Shown: positions 1 to 7,063 of the stretch, piece after piece
Layout of the letters: every line of letters starts with the position of its first letter
Position numbering within the stretch: position 1 is the stretch's first letter
Origin: Huberarchaeum crystalense [NCBI: Candidatus Huberarchaeum crystalense]
GTDB lineage: Archaea > Huberarchaeota > Huberarchaeia > Huberarchaeales
NCBI GenBank assembly: GCA_002790315.1
Contig: PFUW01000025.1
Coordinates: 1-7,063, forward strand
DNA length: 7,063 nt
Direction: 5' to 3'
Position numbers and translations under genes: made by a program
Notes under the pieces: generated by a model
Databases searched by the model: none
Seen by the model: the letters and a program-made list of their open reading frames with translations, nothing else
Told to the model about the DNA's origin: nothing

Positions 1-3000
1 AGAATACATCCAGTAGTGGCATATATTACAAAGCCTTTTGTATATATTCAAGGATGTTATTCTGAAATGTTTGCTTATTCAGACGGTACTCCTGGATATA
101 GATTAAGTTGCACTCTTTCAAATCCAGATTTTTATTGGGGAATAGGAAACTCATATCGCTGTAAATCTTGCAGTAGTGTTTCTACTATAAATAACACAGC
201 TAATAGTCAATGGCATGTTATAATAACAGGTAAAAATGTTGATGGAAGCACAAGCACTAGACTTGACAAAACAGAAGACATCGGGGTAAATATTCCTTGT
301 GGTACTAAAATAACAAAAAAAATAGAAAAAGAAATACCTATTTCAGAATTAGCTACATCAGAGGGGGTAGATACAGTAAATATTATTACTTTATCCGATG
401 GAAAAAAAGATACTCAAACACAACAATTTTATAGTGTAAAGAACTTTCTTTTTCCAATCGGGGATAAATTTGAAATGTGTACTAGTATGAGTGAGGCATA
501 TATTAGATTTAGTGCTGCTAATATTGATTATAAATCGCAAAGCGCCACAATTGATTGTATGAGTGGAGCAAACTGCGCGCAAACCAATATTTTTGATATT
601 CCTTTGTGGGGATCTCTTGTTGGAACTGTTCATGCAAAAGGGTTGACAGGAGGTACTAATGGTGCTACATACACACTACGTGTAAAGGGAGAAATTCCAT
701 TAGGCACTAGTAAGCGCACAGATAAAAAGGAAATAACTATTACAAAGAATGATTATGTGTGTGGTCAGAATATAATGGTAACTCGTTTTTGGCCTAATAC
801 TTCTTGCGAATTAGGAAAACCAATTAAATTTACAGCTGAATTACGGTCAACTAGTAGCAATAAAATAAGCGAGAAGTTTTATAATCAATTTAAAATTGGA
901 AGTCTATACAGTGAGCATTTATATTTAACAGAGAATCAATTTCAAAACTTAACAAACTACAACTTAACATATATTGATTATAATTGGATACCATCATCAG
1001 CAGGACCATATTCTGCTTGTATTATTGCAGATAGCAATAACAACATAATAAAAGAAACAGACGAATCTGATAATCGTGCGTGTTCTACTTTTTATTGCAC
1101 TGGATTTTTAGGCTTTGTAGATAAATCAGTGGATAAGATAACAGCTGAACCGCACCAATTAATAAAATATACAATTCCTTATGGAAATATTAAGGGGGGG
1201 GTTAATTTAACAAACGTAAAAATTAGTGATACTTTGCCAGCAGGAACTACTTATGTTAATTCATCTCCAGAAGGCATAATGAGAAATAATGTTATTACAT
1301 GGAATCTTGGAAATCTTGAGGCAGGAGATGGAGGTACACTTAGTTTAATACTAAATATATCAACTTGTTATACAAAAGGTACAATAATTCCAAATTCAGC
1401 TAAACTCACAGCAGGAGATAATATGGGAAATTCTTATTCTACAGATTCCCCTTCTGTTTCTACTAGAATTGTTTGTTCTAAAGACACTGATAATGATGGT
1501 CTTTGTGATGTATGTGATCTTGTTTTTTGTGGAAATGGTGGGTGTGATGCAGGCGAAACTTGTGCTACTTGTCCTTTTGATTGTGCTTGTGTTTCTCCAG
1601 ATGTTTGTTGTGGATCTGGATCTAGTGCAAAATGTTTTACTCTTGCTTGTATTTCAAATTCAGATTGTAGATACCTCGATGCTGCGTGTAGAAAGTATAG
1701 TTGTGTGTTTGGAGGCACATGTAATGCAAAATGCAATATTTCCTCAGAAATAACACATTGTAATAATAGTACTAAAGATGGTTGTTGTCCTCCTGGTTGC
1801 ACGACTGCAAATGATGCTGATTGCCTTGCTACTTGTGGAAATGGTATTTGTGATAAACTGAGTGAAAATTGTAATAATTGCCCTAGAGATTGTGGTTGTA
1901 ATGCTACTTATGAATATTGTAGTAAAAAAGGTGTTTGTGAACCATTGTGTGGAGATGGTAGGTGTGATAGGGGTAGTGGTGAAAATGAAATTTCTTGTTG
2001 TATAGATTGCTCTTGTTCTGCAAACCTCTGTTTAGGATCAACATATATAACTCATAATTGCCCTTTTAAAAATGGTCTTGGTGGGTGTGCAACTAATCAT
2101 GATGATTGTAGTGATTGCTCTTGTTCTTGTGGGGGATATAATCGCACAGAAAAACCGTCTGATGGTTCTTGCAATGATAAAAAAGATAATAATTGTGATG
2201 GAGAGTGTGATTATGATACATCTGGTGGATGTATAAAAGGAGATAAAGGATGTTCTATTGAAATAACTAACATAGCAGTATCTGCGTCAACTGTTTGCCC
2301 TGGTGAATATGTTTATGTTAACTGCACTTCTTCTGTTCCAAATGTAAATAGTGTTGAGGTATCTGTTGATGGAGATTCTACAAAGTGTAGTTGGACAGCA
2401 TGGAATGGAAATAAAGCAAACTTTAGGTGTTATGTAAGCGAGACCACAAAAACACAAACAATAAACTGCGCAGTAAATACAAACAAGTCATATAAACAAG
2501 GATCAGATAAAAACCAAACAATTACAGTAGGAGGACAGGTGTGCTGTTCAGATTATAAAACAAGTGCTGTTTGTGGTAATGACAACAAATGTGAATGGTG
2601 TCATACATGTAAAGGAACAAAATATAGCGGGGGTGGTGATAGATGTATAAGTAAAGGTAATTGTATTTTTTCTTGCAACAAAAGAATGTGTAGTGCAACT
2701 TGTGATGCAGCACAAGGTGGTTGTGGTCAGGTTTATGACTATACTGTTTGGGATAGTTGTAAAAATAATACTGTAAAAGAAGGAACAAGATATTGTAATA
2801 TTACAACTTGTGATAGTAATTCTTGCTCTTGCAAATATGACTCTGCTGGGGTGTGTGATGTTGCATCTGAAACTCTTTCTTGCGATTCTGATTCAGTATG
2901 TGTAGGAGGACAATGTAAAAAAGACACAGATAAAGATGGAGTTCCTGATGACTCTGATAATTGTATATATGTATCAAATCCAGATCAAAATGATTCTGAT

Positions 3001-6000
3001 AATGATGGTGTTGGTAATGCATGTGATAATTGTAGATATGTCCTTAATTCAAACCAAAAAGACACAGATAATGATTGTTCTCGTCCACCATATGTATACT
3101 GTCCTTTGTGTGGAGATATGTGTGATTCAGAAAATATATGTTCTTGTTATACTTGTACAGAATGTACTAATATGCTTTGGAATGAAAGTTGTAAAATTGT
3201 TCTTTTAAAAGTAAATTTGCAACCCGCAGCTTCTTGTATTACAGGTCCAACAGGAATATACTCTGCAGATTTATCTTTGATTTTTGATTCAAAGAGATTT
3301 GACTGCCAAAACCACTCAATAATAGGTAGTGGAAAAGGAAATGGAATTGAATTAAAGGGTAATGGGGGTGTTGGTGGAAATAATTTAATTGAAAATTGCA
3401 TAATTGAAAACTTTGAAAAAGGAATTAGTGTGACAAATTCAAACACCAATGTTTTTTATAATAATCAAATACAAAATAATAAGATAGTTGGAATTGAAAT
3501 CGACACTTCTTCAAAAAACAACACCTTACATTATAATGTTATTTGCAATAATACGAGAGATATTTTAGATAGAGGTATTAATAATAAAGGATTAGAAAAT
3601 TATTGTTCTGTTTTTGGTAATTGGAATGATGTTGGCGGAGCTTATAAATTAGGGTGCAGCCACAAATGTATTGAAAAGTATTGTGTAGATGCTGATAATG
3701 ATGGATATTTTGCTGTTTCTTGTGGGGGAGATGACTGCGATGATAACAATTCATCAATTAATCCAAGAGTATCAGAAAAATGCAATACATCTATAGATGA
3801 GAATTGTAATGGTCTAATAGATGAAGAGGGTTGTATGAATATTTCTGATTGTATAGATGAAGACAGAGATGGATTTGTTAGTTGTACTTATTGTGCTAAT
3901 TGTTCTACTTGTAATATGAGTAAATGCGATTGCAATGACAACAATCCACATATTAGCCCGAGTCAAAAAGAAATTTGTAATGATGGTATTGATAATAATT
4001 GTAATGGCCTTATTGATGAAAACACATTAGATAACCCCTGTGTCAATTCTCAAACTATTTGTATTGATTCAAGTGGTGATAGATATTATAGATATACAAA
4101 AGGAGATCCTTTGGTTTGTCAAGAAATGGGGGAGGATTGTGATGATACAAGGGCAGATATTGGTCCAAACCAGGGAGAAATTTGTGATGATGGTATTGAT
4201 AATAATTGCGATACTTTGATTGATTTAGATGACCCAGAATGCCAGTGTAAAGATGAAGACAAAGACGGCTTTTTTGCATGTTCGCCCCTTTGCTTGCTTA
4301 TAACAACAAAATGTGATTGCAATGATAAAAATGCTAATATTAATCCAAATGCAACTGAGATCTGCAATGGAATTGATGATAATTGTGATGGCTCTATTGA
4401 TACTGGTTGTCCTTGTTCGCCTGTAGGTATTACTCAAATATGTAGTAAAAATGTTGGTATTTGTAAAGAAGGAAATCAAATATGCCAGAGCGATTATACG
4501 TGGGGTGAGTGTGATGGTGTGTTGCCTATGGAAGAAATTCCTGATAATGGTATTGATGAAGATTGTGATGGACAAGATTTAATAACTAAAAAAGAAAAGA
4601 GCGAGGGTGGGGGTTTAAGCAGACCAGTATCTTTTCATAAGATAGGCAAAATTCAATATATATTTACTCCTGTTGATATATCTAAAATTTGCTTAAGAGA
4701 AACAATATGTATTACTTTTATTGATGTAGATGAAGTTTCTGTTTCAGATAATGTTAGATTGTTAGGTGTTAGTTCAAACAACAAATTTTGTTTTAAAGTT
4801 GAAAATATAGGGGTTCAATCTATTCAAATGAAAAAGCTCGGTTATATGCCTGTCTATGAATCATTAAGTGTCATAGATTGTAAAAAGTGTGGAGATGGTG
4901 TTTGCTCTTCAGAAACAGGAGAAAACTCAATAACATGTTGTGAAGATTGTGGTTCAAAATGCGGAGACGAAGTTTGTAATTGTAATGAAAACAATCAGAC
5001 TTGTGTAAAAGATTGTAATCCTTGCTCAGAATATGGGTGTGGAGATGGTGTTTGCGGGGCAGAGTGTGGAGAAACATCTGAAACTTGTATAGAAGATTGC
5101 GGAAAACCCGTCCTTCTTGTTAAAGATTGCACTTGTGACTTTACATCTCCAAATTGGCACACACCCATTTTAGCAATATTATCATTAATTTTAATATTTT
5201 TAACTTACTCTTTTACAGCACTTAAAAACCGTTGCCCTTTATCTGAGAAATCTGACGAAAATACATTAAAAAATTATCTTTCTAAAGCCCTTATAGAACA
5301 AGGAACAGAATACAAATTGCCCCAAAACATCTTATCAACAAAATATTCACTAACTTCTTTACTTCCAGTACTGCTTTTAAAAGGTTGGACAAATAATCAA
5401 ATCACTAATGCTATTAAAAGTATAGAGCAATATAAAAATGACTATATTCAACTGATTGCTGGCATTATTGTTTTTGCAATTTCGGTTGGTTTAACTTATC
5501 TTGCATACAATGGAAAATTAGTTATTTACTCATCCACAATGCTTTGCGATGCTTGTTTGCTTTTTTACCTTGTTCCATCACTTTTGTCAATTGTTTTGGT
5601 TTATTTGGCTTCAAACCAAATTTATCGCATTCCAAATAAAAACAATTCAGAACAAGATGTTTTAAGCAATTATTTAGCAAAAGCACTAAAATCCCAAGAA
5701 CAAGACACACTCAGTTCTACATATTCAAATAAAGAATTATTGTCAAAAATAAAAACCATGCAGTTTGACAAACAGTTATTAAGCGACATATTTTCAAGAA
5801 TTAAAAATATGTTTTCTCATATTTTGAGCGTGTTAAAAAATACAGCTTTTCCCCGATTTTCAGAAGAACAACTGCTTCCACTTGCTATATATAAAGGATG
5901 GACAAAAGCAGAATTTAATAAGGCAAAACTATCGGTTATTAAGCCACAATATGATTTTATACAACTAATCATAACAATAATTACAGCAATGGTTTTAGTA

Positions 6001-6327
6001 TGTGTTTTAATTTTTATAGGTTGTTGTAAATCTCTTGTTTTGCCGTGGATGATTGTTTTGCTGTCTGGCGCGCATATTTTCTACAAGATTTTACAAAACA
6101 AAAAACTTGAAGAAATGCCAATTAGCAGTGATTTGCAAGTTAATGTTTCTAAAATTTTAGAAATTTCTGTGAAGATATTAGAGAGCAAACAAATATTTGT
6201 TCAACAAAAAGAGTTATTACCAGAAAAAATTGAATATCAGGGACAACAATTTTGGAGAGTTCTGACAAAAGATAAAAACCACGAAGTCATACTTGATTTA
6301 AAAGGAAAAGTGTTGAGAGTTATTTAA
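1..6327 (+). CDS. Giant modular Cys-rich surface protein with C-terminal membrane module (5' partial)
   Basis: The frame is open from base 1 to TAA at 6325-6327 (2108 codons). The GTG at 16 is probably not the start: it has codons before it, no ribosome site and no signal peptide after it, so the true start lies upstream. Domains, numbered from the first codon of the window: beta-rich N-terminus 1-250; CARDB-like about 254-366 (ends in DESDNRA); DUF11-like 373-491 (ISDTLPAGTTYVNSSP, WNLGNLEAG); Cys-rich 492-752; Ig-like 753-843; Cys-rich 847-974; thrombospondin type 3 repeats 975-1026; NosD-like beta-helix 1047-1223; MopE-type repeats 1230-1527; beta-rich 1539-1625; CGDG repeats 1630-1701; five predicted membrane helices about 1719-1741, 1815-1837, 1847-1871, 1986-2007, 2011-2031; soluble tail to 2108. 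Well over 100 cysteines and many N-x-S/T sequons lie before the first helix, as expected for an exported disulphide-rich, possibly glycosylated ectodomain. Predicted topology is N-out, C-in. A role in adhesion, metal binding or signalling is inference; no catalytic motif was seen. Confidence 0.93.
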   Translation, partial: RIHPVVAYITKPFVYIQGCYSEMFAYSDGTPGYRLSCTLSNPDFYWGIGNSYRCKSCSSVSTINNTANSQWHVIITGKNVDGSTSTRLDKTEDIGVNIPCGTKITKKIEKEIPISELATSEGVDTVNIITLSDGKKDTQTQQFYSVKNFLFPIGDKFEMCTSMSEAYIRFSAANIDYKSQSATIDCMSGANCAQTNIFDIPLWGSLVGTVHAKGLTGGTNGATYTLRVKGEIPLGTSKRTDKKEITITKNDYVCGQNIMVTRFWPNTSCELGKPIKFTAELRSTSSNKISEKFYNQFKIGSLYSEHLYLTENQFQNLTNYNLTYIDYNWIPSSAGPYSACIIADSNNNIIKETDESDNRACSTFYCTGFLGFVDKSVDKITAEPHQLIKYTIPYGNIKGGVNLTNVKISDTLPAGTTYVNSSPEGIMRNNVITWNLGNLEAGDGGTLSLILNISTCYTKGTIIPNSAKLTAGDNMGNSYSTDSPSVSTRIVCSKDTDNDGLCDVCDLVFCGNGGCDAGETCATCPFDCACVSPDVCCGSGSSAKCFTLACISNSDCRYLDAACRKYSCVFGGTCNAKCNISSEITHCNNSTKDGCCPPGCTTANDADCLATCGNGICDKLSENCNNCPRDCGCNATYEYCSKKGVCEPLCGDGRCDRGSGENEISCCIDCSCSANLCLGSTYITHNCPFKNGLGGCATNHDDCSDCSCSCGGYNRTEKPSDGSCNDKKDNNCDGECDYDTSGGCIKGDKGCSIEITNIAVSASTVCPGEYVYVNCTSSVPNVNSVEVSVDGDSTKCSWTAWNGNKANFRCYVSETTKTQTINCAVNTNKSYKQGSDKNQTITVGGQVCCSDYKTSAVCGNDNKCEWCHTCKGTKYSGGGDRCISKGNCIFSCNKRMCSATCDAAQGGCGQVYDYTVWDSCKNNTVKEGTRYCNITTCDSNSCSCKYDSAGVCDVASETLSCDSDSVCVGGQCKKDTDKDGVPDDSDNCIYVSNPDQNDSDNDGVGNACDNCRYVLNSNQKDTDNDCSRPPYVYCPLCGDMCDSENICSCYTCTECTNMLWNESCKIVLLKVNLQPAASCITGPTGIYSADLSLIFDSKRFDCQNHSIIGSGKGNGIELKGNGGVGGNNLIENCIIENFEKGISVTNSNTNVFYNNQIQNNKIVGIEIDTSSKNNTLHYNVICNNTRDILDRGINNKGLENYCSVFGNWNDVGGAYKLGCSHKCIEKYCVDADNDGYFAVSCGGDDCDDNNSSINPRVSEKCNTSIDENCNGLIDEEGCMNISDCIDEDRDGFVSCTYCANCSTCNMSKCDCNDNNPHISPSQKEICNDGIDNNCNGLIDENTLDNPCVNSQTICIDSSGDRYYRYTKGDPLVCQEMGEDCDDTRADIGPNQGEICDDGIDNNCDTLIDLDDPECQCKDEDKDGFFACSPLCLLITTKCDCNDKNANINPNATEICNGIDDNCDGSIDTGCPCSPVGITQICSKNVGICKEGNQICQSDYTWGECDGVLPMEEIPDNGIDEDCDGQDLITKKEKSEGGGLSRPVSFHKIGKIQYIFTPVDISKICLRETICITFIDVDEVSVSDNVRLLGVSSNNKFCFKVENIGVQSIQMKKLGYMPVYESLSVIDCKKCGDGVCSSETGENSITCCEDCGSKCGDEVCNCNENNQTCVKDCNPCSEYGCGDGVCGAECGETSETCIEDCGKPVLLVKDCTCDFTSPNWHTPILAILSLILIFLTYSFTALKNRCPLSEKSDENTLKNYLSKALIEQGTEYKLPQNILSTKYSLTSLLPVLLLKGWTNNQITNAIKSIEQYKNDYIQLIAGIIVFAISVGLTYLAYNGKLVIYSSTMLCDACLLFYLVPSLLSIVLVYLASNQIYRIPNKNNSEQDVLSNYLAKALKSQEQDTLSSTYSNKELLSKIKTMQFDKQLLSDIFSRIKNMFSHILSVLKNTAFPRFSEEQLLPLAIYKGWTKAEFNKAKLSVIKPQYDFIQLIITIITAMVLVCVLIFIGCCKSLVLPWMIVLLSGAHIFYKILQNKKLEEMPISSDLQVNVSKILEISVKILESKQIFVQQKELLPEKIEYQGQQFWRVLTKDKNHEVILDLKGKVLRVI
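760..1473 (+). other. CARDB-like and DUF11-like beta-sandwich pair (protein domains)
   Basis: These are two consecutive domains of the large protein. The first (760-1098) has the CARDB pattern: a cysteine-flanked strand start (PNTSCELGKPIKF), a W-x-P-x-x-A-G-P-Y strand and the closing I-x-E-x-D-E-S-D-N. The second (1117-1473) begins VDKSVDK and carries the DUF11 hallmarks V-K-I-S-D-T-L-P-A-G-T-T-Y, a tryptophan strand (ITWNLGNLEAGDGG) and a late N-S-A-K-L-T. Both families are extracellular spacer or adhesion modules in archaeal and bacterial surface proteins. The assignment is by recognised pattern, not by a profile search. Confidence 0.7.
1483..2016 (+). repeat. First cluster of CGNG/CGDG Cys-rich protein repeats
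   Basis: After a single D-T-D-N-D-G calcium-type motif (1483-1500), three copies of a repeat starting C-G-(N/D)-G-x-C-D and ending D-C-x-C lie at 1528-1590, 1834-1899 and 1948-2016. Between the first two is DGCCPPGCTTANDADC (1777-1824), a short Cys motif that often precedes CGNG repeats in prokaryotic surface proteins. Regular cysteine spacing suggests small disulphide-stapled units. The function is unknown; a rigid stalk or metal-binding role is inference. Confidence 0.75.
2161..2217 (+). repeat. Isolated partial MopE-type motif
   Basis: The encoded stretch SCNDKKDNNCDGECDYD matches the second half of the MopE-type unit (C-N-D-x-x-D-N-N-C-D-G-x-x-D) without the preceding D-x-D-x-D-G half. 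It lies about 1.5 kb upstream of the main array in the same protein. It may be a relic or a naturally occurring half-unit. Confidence 0.6.
2257..2529 (+). other. Ig-like beta-sandwich domain within the large protein
   Basis: About 91 residues lie between two Cys-rich blocks. They show alternating strand-like patterns: IEITNIAVSASTVCPGEYVYV, then VNSVEVSVDG, a W-T-A-W strand pair and a final N-Q-T-I-T-V. The cysteines are spaced like an intradomain disulphide. This resembles Ig-like or CARDB-type spacer domains of surface proteins, but I cannot name a family. Confidence 0.45.
2539..2922 (+). other. Cys-rich block beginning with a PSI-like motif
   Basis: The block begins CCSDYKTSAVCGNDNKCEWC, which resembles the PSI (plexin-semaphorin-integrin) pattern C-x(n)-C-x-x-x-x-x-C-x-W-C. 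It continues with about 20 further cysteines in short spacing and leads directly into the thrombospondin type 3 repeats. PSI similarity rests on cysteine and tryptophan spacing only; the rest is unassigned. Confidence 0.4.
2923..3078 (+). repeat. Thrombospondin type 3 calcium-binding repeats
   Basis: The translation contains DTDKDGVPDDSDNCIYVSNP, then DQNDSDNDGVGNACDNC and DTDND. This is the standard D-x-D-x-D-G-x-x-D-x-x-D-N-C ... N-P-D-Q spacing of thrombospondin type 3 repeats, which bind calcium through the aspartates in exported proteins. The third copy is truncated after DTDNDC, so there are roughly two full units and one partial unit. Confidence 0.88.
3139..3669 (+). other. NosD-like parallel beta-helix module with Cys-rich cap
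   Basis: The module begins with a cysteine knot (CSCYTCTECTNMLWNESC) and a capping region. It reaches the FDCQNHSIIGSGKGNGIEL turn, then shows rungs such as NLIENCIIENFEKGISV, NTNVFYNNQIQNNKIVGIEI and NNTLHYNVICNN. This is the repeating N-x-I-x-x-N-x-I-x-x-x-x-x-G-I pattern of right-handed parallel beta-helix (PbH1/NosD-like) proteins. Only about four rungs are seen, so the helix is short. The same cap and first rung recur at the start of the next gene (6713). Confidence 0.8.
3688..4581 (+). repeat. Array of five MopE-type metal-binding-motif repeats
   Basis: Units are at 3688-3834, 3856-4041, 4066-4242, 4252-4410 and 4414-4581. Each of the first four combines an aspartate-rich half (D-x-D-x-D-G-(Y/F) ... 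D-C-(D/N)-D) with I-x-P, then E-(I/K)-C-N-x-x-I-D-(N/E/D)-N-C-(N/D)-x-x-I-D. The fifth is the variant with G-I-C-K-E-G-N-Q-I-C, a W-G-E-C strand and NGIDEDCDG. The family is named after the surface protein MopE of Methylococcus capsulatus and is annotated as a putative metal-binding motif. Aspartate clusters suggest calcium binding; copper binding is known for MopE itself but cannot be assumed here. Unit 3 is degenerate in its first half (DSSGDRYYRY). Confidence 0.88.
4888..5103 (+). repeat. Second cluster of CGDG Cys-rich repeats, next to the membrane
   Basis: Three units, C-G-D-G-V-C-S-x-x-x-G-E-N ... D-C-G (4888-4953), C-G-D-E-V-C-N-C-N (4960-5016) and C-G-D-G-V-C-G-A-E-C-G-E (5038-5103), lie about 50 bases before the first membrane helix. 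They are of the same type as those at 1528-2016. Their position suggests a disulphide-rich stalk that lifts the ectodomain from the membrane (inference). Confidence 0.78.
5254..6108 (+). repeat. Tandem duplicated 'KGWT' helical plus membrane-hairpin module
   Basis: Unit A is about 5254-5613 and unit B about 5647-6108. Both start with an N-Y-L-x-K-A-L helix (TLKNYLSKAL and VLSNYLAKAL). Both later have L-L-P-x-x-x-x-K-G-W-T (K-G-W-T codons at 5380-5391 and 5893-5904), then an A-x-x-x-I segment, (Y/Q)-x-x-D-(Y/F)-I-Q-L-I and a two-helix membrane hairpin. Unit B has an insertion of about 35 residues between the first helix and KGWT. Preceding membrane helix 1 (5155-5223) puts the soluble parts inside the cell. 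Similar GW(S/T)-x-x-x-(I/L) helical motifs occur in uncharacterised membrane proteins of DPANN archaea, but I know no function for them. Confidence 0.8.
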
Positions 6328-6712: not shown

Positions 6713-7063
6713 ATGGCCAACAAATCAACCAAACTCTTGTTTTTTGTATGTGTACTTATAACCCTTTTTTTGTTTTCTTGGACTGCGAATGCATTCCTTA
6801 TTATCCAACCCTGTTATATTGGAGATGAAGCAGGATGTACTTGTGAATGTGACTCTTGTGAAGATTGCACAAATGCATTAAATTCTACTTCTTGTAAGAA
6901 CATTAAATTACAAAAAAATATAAGCATCTCATCAGAAACCTGCATTAATAATCCTGAAAATTTCAATAACAAAACATTTGATTGTCAAGGACATACAATT
7001 GAAGGAAATGGTTCTGGATCTGATTATGGAATTTATTTAAATGGAAAATCAGGAAATATGATT
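6713..7063 (+). CDS. Secreted Cys-rich beta-helix protein, paralogue of the internal module of the large protein (3' partial)
   Basis: The frame is open from ATG at 6713 to the window end (117 codons). It is the only usual start available: an in-frame TGA lies at 6683-6685 and no ATG, GTG or TTG intervenes. No Shine-Dalgarno motif is at usable distance. Residues 1-27 form a clear signal peptide: MANKSTK, a hydrophobic core rich in L, F and V, then SWTANA with likely cleavage before FLIIQ. The mature part has a cysteine cluster (CTCECDSCEDCTNALNSTSC), a strand region with TCINNPENF, and FDCQGHTIEGNGSGSDYGIY followed by L-N-G-K-S-G-N. This is the cap and first rung of a NosD-like parallel beta-helix, as found repeatedly in DPANN archaeal secreted proteins. 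It aligns with residues encoded at 3139-3390 of the upstream gene, with matching cysteines. The rest of the protein, including any membrane anchor or further modules, is outside the window. Function is unknown; carbohydrate binding or adhesion is a guess. Confidence 0.88.
   Translation, partial: MANKSTKLLFFVCVLITLFLFSWTANAFLIIQPCYIGDEAGCTCECDSCEDCTNALNSTSCKNIKLQKNISISSETCINNPENFNNKTFDCQGHTIEGNGSGSDYGIYLNGKSGNMI

What the first reader, a model, noticed from the sequence alone, without database searches (positions are those of the whole stretch)
5254..6324. Tandem duplicated intracellular 'KGWT' and membrane-hairpin module on a giant surface protein
Seen: two diverged copies of N-Y-L-x-K-A-L ... 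L-L-P-x-x-x-x-K-G-W-T ... D-(Y/F)-I-Q-L-I plus a two-helix hairpin, joined to a Cys-rich ectodomain by one earlier helix. An anchor alone needs only one helix. Five helices with two conserved intracellular helical domains suggest a job such as signal transfer, oligomerisation or secretion of partners. I know of no characterised family with this layout, so this is the best candidate for an undescribed system.
Basis: partly seen in the sequence, partly recalled or inferred. Interest (0 to 1): 0.6.

Follow-up and report, generated by a model that had tools for sequence, protein, structure and literature searches.

The report
Giant archaeal surface protein's docking tail
The inner end of a giant surface protein of a small, probably host-dependent archaeon carries two copies of a tiny three-helix domain that turns out to be common in such archaea, has no name in the family libraries searched, and may dock surface proteins to partners inside the cell.

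Summary
The last 357 residues of a giant, Cys-rich surface protein (2297 aa, start not seen) contain two diverged KGW units, each followed by a membrane hairpin, after one earlier membrane helix. The duplication is supported for the soluble parts, not for the hairpins alone.

The KGW unit is not private to this protein. It is one form of a ~45-residue three-helix domain, weakly RecX/UBA-like, without a Pfam or NCBIfam family of its own, matched in 135 of 394 genomes of the same domain (Archaea). It also begins a soluble coiled-coil protein that lies with a secretion/pilus-type ATPase (PF00437) in 43 of 56 distinct loci; this genome has that coiled-coil protein too. A 3332-aa surface protein elsewhere carries three KGW units behind its single helix.

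Seen only in this genome: KGW units alternating with hairpins (0 of 72 ORFs elsewhere lie between helices) and a tail shared with one paralogue. Best reading: a host-contact-type surface protein with a bivalent cytoplasmic docking tail. Docking is inferred and the partner unknown. Moderate interest; a new variant of a known kind.

The parts
1..6327 (+). giant surface protein ORF, 2108 aa in the window (2297 aa to the 5' end of its contig, start not seen): DUF11, five stretches of MopE-type metal-binding motif, weak beta-helix match, CGDGxC Cys repeats
5167..5229 (+). TM1, joins ectodomain to inner part
   Evidence: hydropathy
5272..5292 (+). NYLxKAL helix motif, copy 1
5344..5427 (+). KGW three-helix domain, copy 1
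   Evidence: profile without any sequence of this genome: 11.0 bits, E 1.4e-5
5446..5607 (+). membrane hairpin 1 (TM2 about 5446-5505, TM3 about 5551-5607), Cys near the outer loop
   Evidence: hydropathy
5668..5688 (+). NYLxKAL helix motif, copy 2
5857..5946 (+). KGW three-helix domain, copy 2
   Evidence: same profile: 5.9 bits, E 5.8e-4
5959..6096 (+). membrane hairpin 2 (TM4 about 5959-6021, TM5 about 6037-6096), Cys-Cys in the outer loop
   Evidence: hydropathy
6124..6324 (+). C-terminal tail domain, helix plus four strands, 51% identical to the tail of the paralogue on C52; PepSY-like at best

Best explanation
The stretch is the membrane anchor and cytoplasmic part of a giant adhesin-type surface protein of a reduced-genome archaeon. 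Shown by computation: one helix leads inside; two diverged KGW units follow, each closed by a membrane hairpin; then a folded tail shared with a paralogue. Each KGW unit belongs to a widespread ~45-aa domain, predicted to have three helices, that occurs in positions fitting the cytosol. Inferred: the KGW domain is a small protein-docking module. Two copies held against the membrane by hairpins would grip one oligomeric partner in two places and so tie a very large outside arm to something inside the cell. The most concrete partner candidate is the soluble KGW/KGY coiled-coil protein that elsewhere lies with a secretion/pilus-type ATPase and that this genome also encodes (contig C48); this last step is a guess.
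For: Paralogue with the same order (signal-peptide-like helix, Cys repeats, TM, one KGW, hairpin) on C42. A profile built from 25 sequences of other genomes finds just the two KGW units in 2297 aa (protein E 3.3e-8), the paralogue's unit (E 1.6e-6) and the C48 coiled-coil protein (1.6e-8); reversed giant (E 0.024) and reversed paralogue (0.12) do not stand out, and 0 of 1070 reversed ORFs hit at 1e-3. Widespread: 135 of 394 genomes at E <= 1e-3. Census of 72 ORFs outside this genome: 33 without TM, 24 with the unit before the first TM, 15 after the last TM, 0 between TMs. Same plan elsewhere: Cys repeats, one TM, one KGW at the very end (L038, L045, L055, L031); signal-peptide-like helix, Cys-rich part, one TM, three tandem KGW in a 3332-aa ORF (L117). 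Coiled-coil partner candidate: ATPase homologue in the locus in 43 of 56 distinct loci, PF00437 at 59.9 bits in the reference cluster; this genome has that protein (C48, 228 bits with a profile that includes it) and a PF00437 ATPase (C6, 60.1 bits). Of 11 best coiled-coil loci from genomes with C-terminal KGW proteins, 8 hold the ATPase homologue.
Against: No interaction is shown. The coiled-coil profile reaches 1e-5 in 11 of 13 genomes with C-terminal KGW proteins but in 91 of 394 overall, mostly small genomes of the same kind, so co-occurrence may be kinship alone. G370, with two C-terminal KGW ORFs (L051, L147), has no match at 1e-3. No second KGW ORF lay in the 30 named coiled-coil loci. 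In this genome ATPase, coiled-coil gene and surface genes are on different, short contigs. KGW relatives were recruited with profiles seeded by the window's units, so one search is not wholly independent, and copy 2 alone is weak (5.9 bits). KGW model only pLDDT 69, pTM 0.47. The paralogue on C52 has TM, hairpin and tail but no KGW, so KGW is dispensable for anchoring.
Confidence: 0.5

Rival explanations
1. The KGW units are self-association modules: they gather several surface proteins into clusters at the membrane, without a separate cytosolic partner.
For: Tandem copies in giants of three genomes (two here, three in L049/L117, about four in L065) and coiled-coil fusions in soluble relatives fit avidity and oligomerisation.
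Against: The analogous short bacterial SHOCT domain was proposed as an oligomerisation domain and its authors' first test did not support it (PMC3581485, abstract and passages). Most relatives listed have a single copy.
Confidence: 0.25
2. The stretch is only a reinforced anchor: extra helices and small folded caps stop a very large ectodomain from being pulled out of the membrane; no specific partner.
For: The C52 paralogue keeps TM, hairpin and tail without KGW; the alternation with hairpins was seen only in this genome (0 of 72 elsewhere).
Against: The KGW domain is found across many genomes, also in soluble proteins that need no anchor, and a larger surface protein elsewhere has one C-terminal helix only.
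Confidence: 0.2
3. The module binds nucleic acid or a RecA-type filament, as its RecX-like sequence might suggest.
For: RecX_HTH1 is the commonest Pfam match (16 of 28 members at E <= 0.05; one protein, L049, passes the cut-off, 29.2 against 26 bits).
Against: Membrane position behind a surface protein; matches are weak and mixed with UBA and Pex14_N.
Confidence: 0.04

Closest known systems
Giant surface proteins of DPANN archaea, for example the nanohaloarchaeal giants also called SPEARE (PMC10266531, abstract start and passages seen)
   Same: very large membrane-anchored ectodomain in a reduced archaeal genome, thought to mediate host contact
   Different: those are described with a VirB4/TraG-like ATPase domain; here Cys-rich and MopE repeats outside and KGW units, hairpins and a small tail at the C-terminal end; no such ATPase match in the 2108 aa scanned
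RecX three-helix domains (Pfam PF21982, PF02631, PF21981)
   Same: three-helix size and the helix, G-aromatic turn, helix pattern; 16 of 28 members match PF21982 weakly
   Different: the window protein itself has no RecX match at E <= 1; position behind a surface protein
SHOCT domain (PF09851; PMC3581485, abstract and passages seen)
   Same: short helical domain scattered over many unrelated architectures, function unknown
   Different: SHOCT is about 30 aa with two helices and mostly C-terminal; the KGW domain is about 45 aa, N- or C-terminal; SHOCT is not among the 25 of 41 families shown
Archaeal type IV pilus systems and their cytosolic coiled-coil proteins (PMC4858521 and PMC6393860, passages seen)
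   Same: the soluble KGW/KGY coiled-coil relative lies with a PF00437 ATPase in most loci
   Different: the window's gene was not seen in such a cluster (upstream side unknown); the passages name a coiled-coil arCOG07564 in one clade, whose identity with this family was not tested

Membership tests
KGW/KGY three-helix domain (defined here, profile A5) | match to a family profile built without this genome | tested here: met
   both units, 11.0 and 5.9 bits; protein E 3.3e-8; reversed control E 0.024; recruits were seeded by the window units
KGW/KGY three-helix domain (defined here, profile A5) | three helices with the G-W at the second turn | tested here: inconclusive
   model of copy 2: helices 2-7, 15-24, 29-43, pLDDT 69, pTM 0.47
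KGW/KGY three-helix domain (defined here, profile A5) | cytosolic side of the membrane | tested here: met
   prediction only: odd number of helices after the ectodomain; K+R 9, 17 and 13 in inner stretches of 72, 117 and 76 aa against 1 and 1 in outer loops of 15 and 5 aa
RecX (PF21982 RecX_HTH1) | Pfam curated cut-off reached by the window's units | tested here: not met
   no RecX match for the window protein at E <= 1; over the cut-off only in a relative, L049
Giant DPANN surface protein, SPEARE type | VirB4/TraG-like ATPase domain | tested here: not met
   no such Pfam or NCBIfam match in the 2108 aa scanned; the N-terminal end of the protein is missing
Giant DPANN surface protein, general | very large ectodomain with C-terminal membrane anchor in a reduced archaeal genome | tested here: met
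   2297-aa open ORF, Cys/MopE/DUF11 repeats, TM1, 500-kb assembly; signal peptide not seen because the contig ends
Type IV pilus or secretion system component | encoded with the ATPase and platform protein of the system | tested here: inconclusive
   4.2 kb downstream on C40 hold, by reading, other surface and enzyme genes; upstream is off the contig; the genome's PF00437 ATPase is on C6
PepSY-like domain (tail) | PepSY fold or profile match | tested here: inconclusive
   VIA Z 6.7 to YpeB C-terminal domain (rmsd 2.5, 57 aligned), 6.0 to YpmB, but a designed protein ranks first at 7.3; no PepSY match in Pfam at E <= 1

The most novel reading that the evidence does not exclude
The KGW domain is a common intracellular plug, not yet described, of host-dependent archaea: giant host-contact proteins and the coiled-coil scaffold of a pilus-type secretion machine carry the same plug or bind the same socket, so that contact on the outside is coupled to pulling or secretion inside. 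In the window's lineage the plug was doubled and clamped to the membrane by hairpins.
Probability: 0.15. Interest if true: 0.75.

Novelty: new variant of a known kind. Interest (0 to 1): 0.45.

Why it matters
How host-dependent archaea connect their giant surface proteins to the inside of the cell is open. The finding points to one small domain, countable by profile, that is shared by surface giants and by a coiled-coil protein encoded with a secretion/pilus-type ATPase. That gives a short list of bait and prey for simple binding tests.

Tried and rejected
Whole-C-terminus search in 197 genomes: the two matches outside this genome (G194 C31, G019) look like chance. Profile A2 including hairpins: 15 matches outside G000; three lie in ORFs with a KGW unit (L038, L045, and L031, recognised only); the other twelve have none, and those I read were membrane-helix or noise matches; L035 and L040 were not read by eye. 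Genome-contig scan with the 387-aa query: 132 stretches matched a pattern, no relative. Plasmids: no match. PDB by sequence: none for the 440-aa end. Foldseek: no match at or under 0.001 for either model; VIA for the KGW model best Z 2.9, uninformative. PDB search with profile A5 lists repeat and designed helical proteins first, RecX 3d5l at E 4.5e-4; treated as weak. FlaC_arch (archaellum) matches of two coiled-coil relatives stayed under the cut-off (25.7 and 23.9 against 27.8) and FlaC_arch is not among the 18 families; dropped. The 646-aa membrane protein beside the ATPase in L109 looks TadC-like by reading, but Pfam gives it no family, so 'pilus-type' rests on PF00437, which also covers secretion systems, and on reading. 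Six paper searches showed no description of the domain; they cover open-licence PMC papers only and could not use the motif itself. Organism not identified: no searched genome is nearer than 'same domain'; of 30 named loci of the coiled-coil relative 23 are titled Aenigm(at)archaeota, so DPANN is inferred.

Full report
What is there. The window is bases 568-7630 of contig C40 of a 500-kb, 74-contig genome, 75% complete. One ORF runs from the contig start to window 6327 (2297 aa, start missing). It holds DUF11, five stretches of a MopE-type metal-binding motif, a weak beta-helix match and Cys repeats of the CGDGxC kind. Its last 357 residues are the finding.

Check of the observation. The motifs stand at the stated places. 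Hydropathy gives five helices: one, then two pairs. Lysine plus arginine counts are 9, 17 and 13 in the three presumed inner stretches (72, 117, 76 aa) and 1 and 1 in the short outer loops (15, 5 aa), so both KGW units and the tail are predicted inside. Unit 1 against unit 2 scores 89 with shuffles at 31.3 +- 5.4, none of 2000 reaching it. The soluble parts alone score 56 against 26.3 +- 4.9 (1 of 5000); the hairpins alone 33 against 27.3 (723 of 5000), no better than composition. The NYL stretch scores 46 against 21.9 +- 4.5 (1 of 5000). The duplication is supported for the soluble unit.

Paralogues in the same genome. C42 holds a 412-aa protein, between a 182-aa ORF and genes that read as uL15 and SecY, with a signal-peptide-like helix, Cys repeats, TM, one KGW unit and one hairpin. 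Its soluble unit resembles unit 2 (54 against 22.1, 0 of 5000) and unit 1 (39 against 19.8, 2 of 5000). A second paralogue on C52 is cut by the contig end; C52 and C25 share an exact 26-base end, so its ectodomain probably lies on C25. It has TM, hairpin and the same tail (51% identity) but no KGW. The tail profile finds only these two places in the genome. The tail models well (blocks at pLDDT 79-86, helix and four strands), most of the rest does not. PepSY proteins are among its structural neighbours at Z 6 to 6.7, below a designed protein at 7.3: inconclusive.

The KGW unit is widespread. A profile with hairpins gave 15 matches outside, of which three lie in surface-type ORFs with Cys repeats, one TM and one KGW at the very end: L038 and L045 and L031. 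A profile of the soluble unit (A4) found 86 of 394 genomes at E <= 0.05, and the enlarged profile (A5, 28 rows) 135 of 394 at E <= 1e-3, the window's genome among them. To guard against drift I rebuilt the profile without the three sequences of this genome: it marks just the two KGW units in the giant (11.0 and 5.9 bits, protein E 3.3e-8), the paralogue's unit (14.1 bits) and the C48 protein (20.5 bits). The reversed giant and paralogue reach 0.024 and 0.12, the KGW-less paralogue 0.086, and 0 of 1070 reversed ORFs reach 1e-3.

Architectures. I classed 72 ORFs of other genomes, from loci fetched out of the match lists (a part of the matches; this genome, the loci of the named scan and two repeats of one ORF were left out): 33 have no TM, 24 carry the unit before the first TM, 15 after the last TM, none between TMs. 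These positions fit the cytosol, but topology was not computed for them, and for L138 (hydrophobic helices at 4-22, 497-515 and 545-563) it is ambiguous. The KGW-hairpin alternation was thus seen only in this genome. L117 is the nearest in kind: 3332 aa, signal-peptide-like helix, Cys-rich part, one TM, three tandem units. Pfam sees 16 of 28 members weakly as RecX_HTH1, and one protein passes its cut-off; UBA and Pex14_N matches also occur. It is a domain of that general sort, without a family of its own in Pfam or NCBIfam as far as searches show.

A lead to function. Many soluble relatives are one family: N-terminal KGW/KGY unit, variable linker, coiled coil. In the reference cluster L109 it lies near a PF00437 ATPase (59.9 bits), a 132-aa coiled-coil protein, three multi-helix proteins and small ORFs that read as pilin-like; the protein that reads as a TadC-like platform has no Pfam match. 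An ATPase homologue was found in 48 of 61 loci; five of these loci were in the set twice, so the count is 43 of 56 distinct loci: 23 of 30 from the genome search, 20 of 25 further ones from the named scan, 0 of 1 for this genome. The 132-aa coiled coil was found in 50 of 61, that is 45 of 56. Loci are 3-13 kb, so absence is weak. In the named scan 23 of 30 records are titled Aenigm(at)archaeota; others are titled Micrarchaeota, Heimdallarchaeota, unnamed archaea or bacteria and may be misbinned; the Crocosphaera locus holds no KGW ORF. This genome has the coiled-coil protein on C48, beside a gene that reads as ileS, and a PF00437 ATPase on C6.

Co-occurrence test. In the 13 genomes with C-terminal KGW ORFs (in two, G011 and G075, small or cut ones), 12 match the coiled-coil family at 1e-3 and 11 at 1e-5, three of these only in the coiled coil (G121, G194, G011); G370, with two such KGW ORFs, has no match. 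Of the best loci of the 11, 8 hold the ATPase homologue. The base rate is 91 of 394 at 1e-5. This does not separate function from kinship. The 30 named loci hold one KGW ORF each, the coiled-coil protein itself, except the Crocosphaera one, which holds none: no KGW-tailed surface protein lies there.

Mechanism. Shown: order, topology by prediction, duplication, family. Inferred: docking. The domain occurs in surface proteins, membrane proteins and a scaffold-like coiled coil, in positions that fit the cytosol; that is the habit of an interaction domain. Two membrane-clamped copies would give two grips on an oligomer. The coiled-coil protein is a candidate partner, at perhaps one in five. Rivals are self-association and mere anchoring.

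Novelty. Giant surface proteins of DPANN archaea and their presumed role in host contact are known (PMC10266531, passages). DPANN pilus-type islands with unrecognised parts are known (PMC6393860 passages; PMC4858521 passages). I found no description of the KGW domain in six searches, which cover open-licence papers only. I call it a new variant of a known kind.

Noticed in passing
window 6713-7063: Next gene starts with a signal-peptide-like helix and a Cys/beta-helix stretch (FDCQGHTIEGNG...) resembling one inside the giant protein at about aa 1050-1200; Pectate_lyase_5 match under its cut-off. Further on, C40 holds runs of N.
   Followed up: no
L007 7539-8774 (G000 C42): The one-unit paralogue sits directly before genes that read as uL15 and SecY, an odd place for a surface protein; whether it touches the translocon is open.
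   Followed up: no
L025 1-26 and L008 15433-15458: Contigs C25 and C52 end in an identical 26 bases in one continuing reading frame, so they probably carry one surface protein gene of over 1200 codons.
   Followed up: partly
window 5446-5607 and 5959-6096; L007 and L008 paralogues: All four hairpins read in this genome carry Cys at or near the outer loop (LCDAC, GCC, GVC, SVC); possible disulfides to the Cys-rich ectodomain or between hairpins.
   Followed up: no
window 5000-6000: GC skew drops from about +0.3 to -0.2 where the Cys/Gly-rich ectodomain gives way to the membrane part; probably codon content.
   Followed up: no
L109 1160-10378: Cluster with three multi-helix proteins of one kind (FPFMLT..FYGLLR+SKIF) and a 132-aa coiled coil with a conserved NP...FVT end; five of nine proteins scanned had no Pfam match at 0.01 or only coiled-coil noise.
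   Followed up: partly
L118 (G319 C9): A surface-type ORF of 3637 open codons with about four KGW-like units near its end, some 4 kb from another surface-type ORF of over 2500 codons.
   Followed up: no
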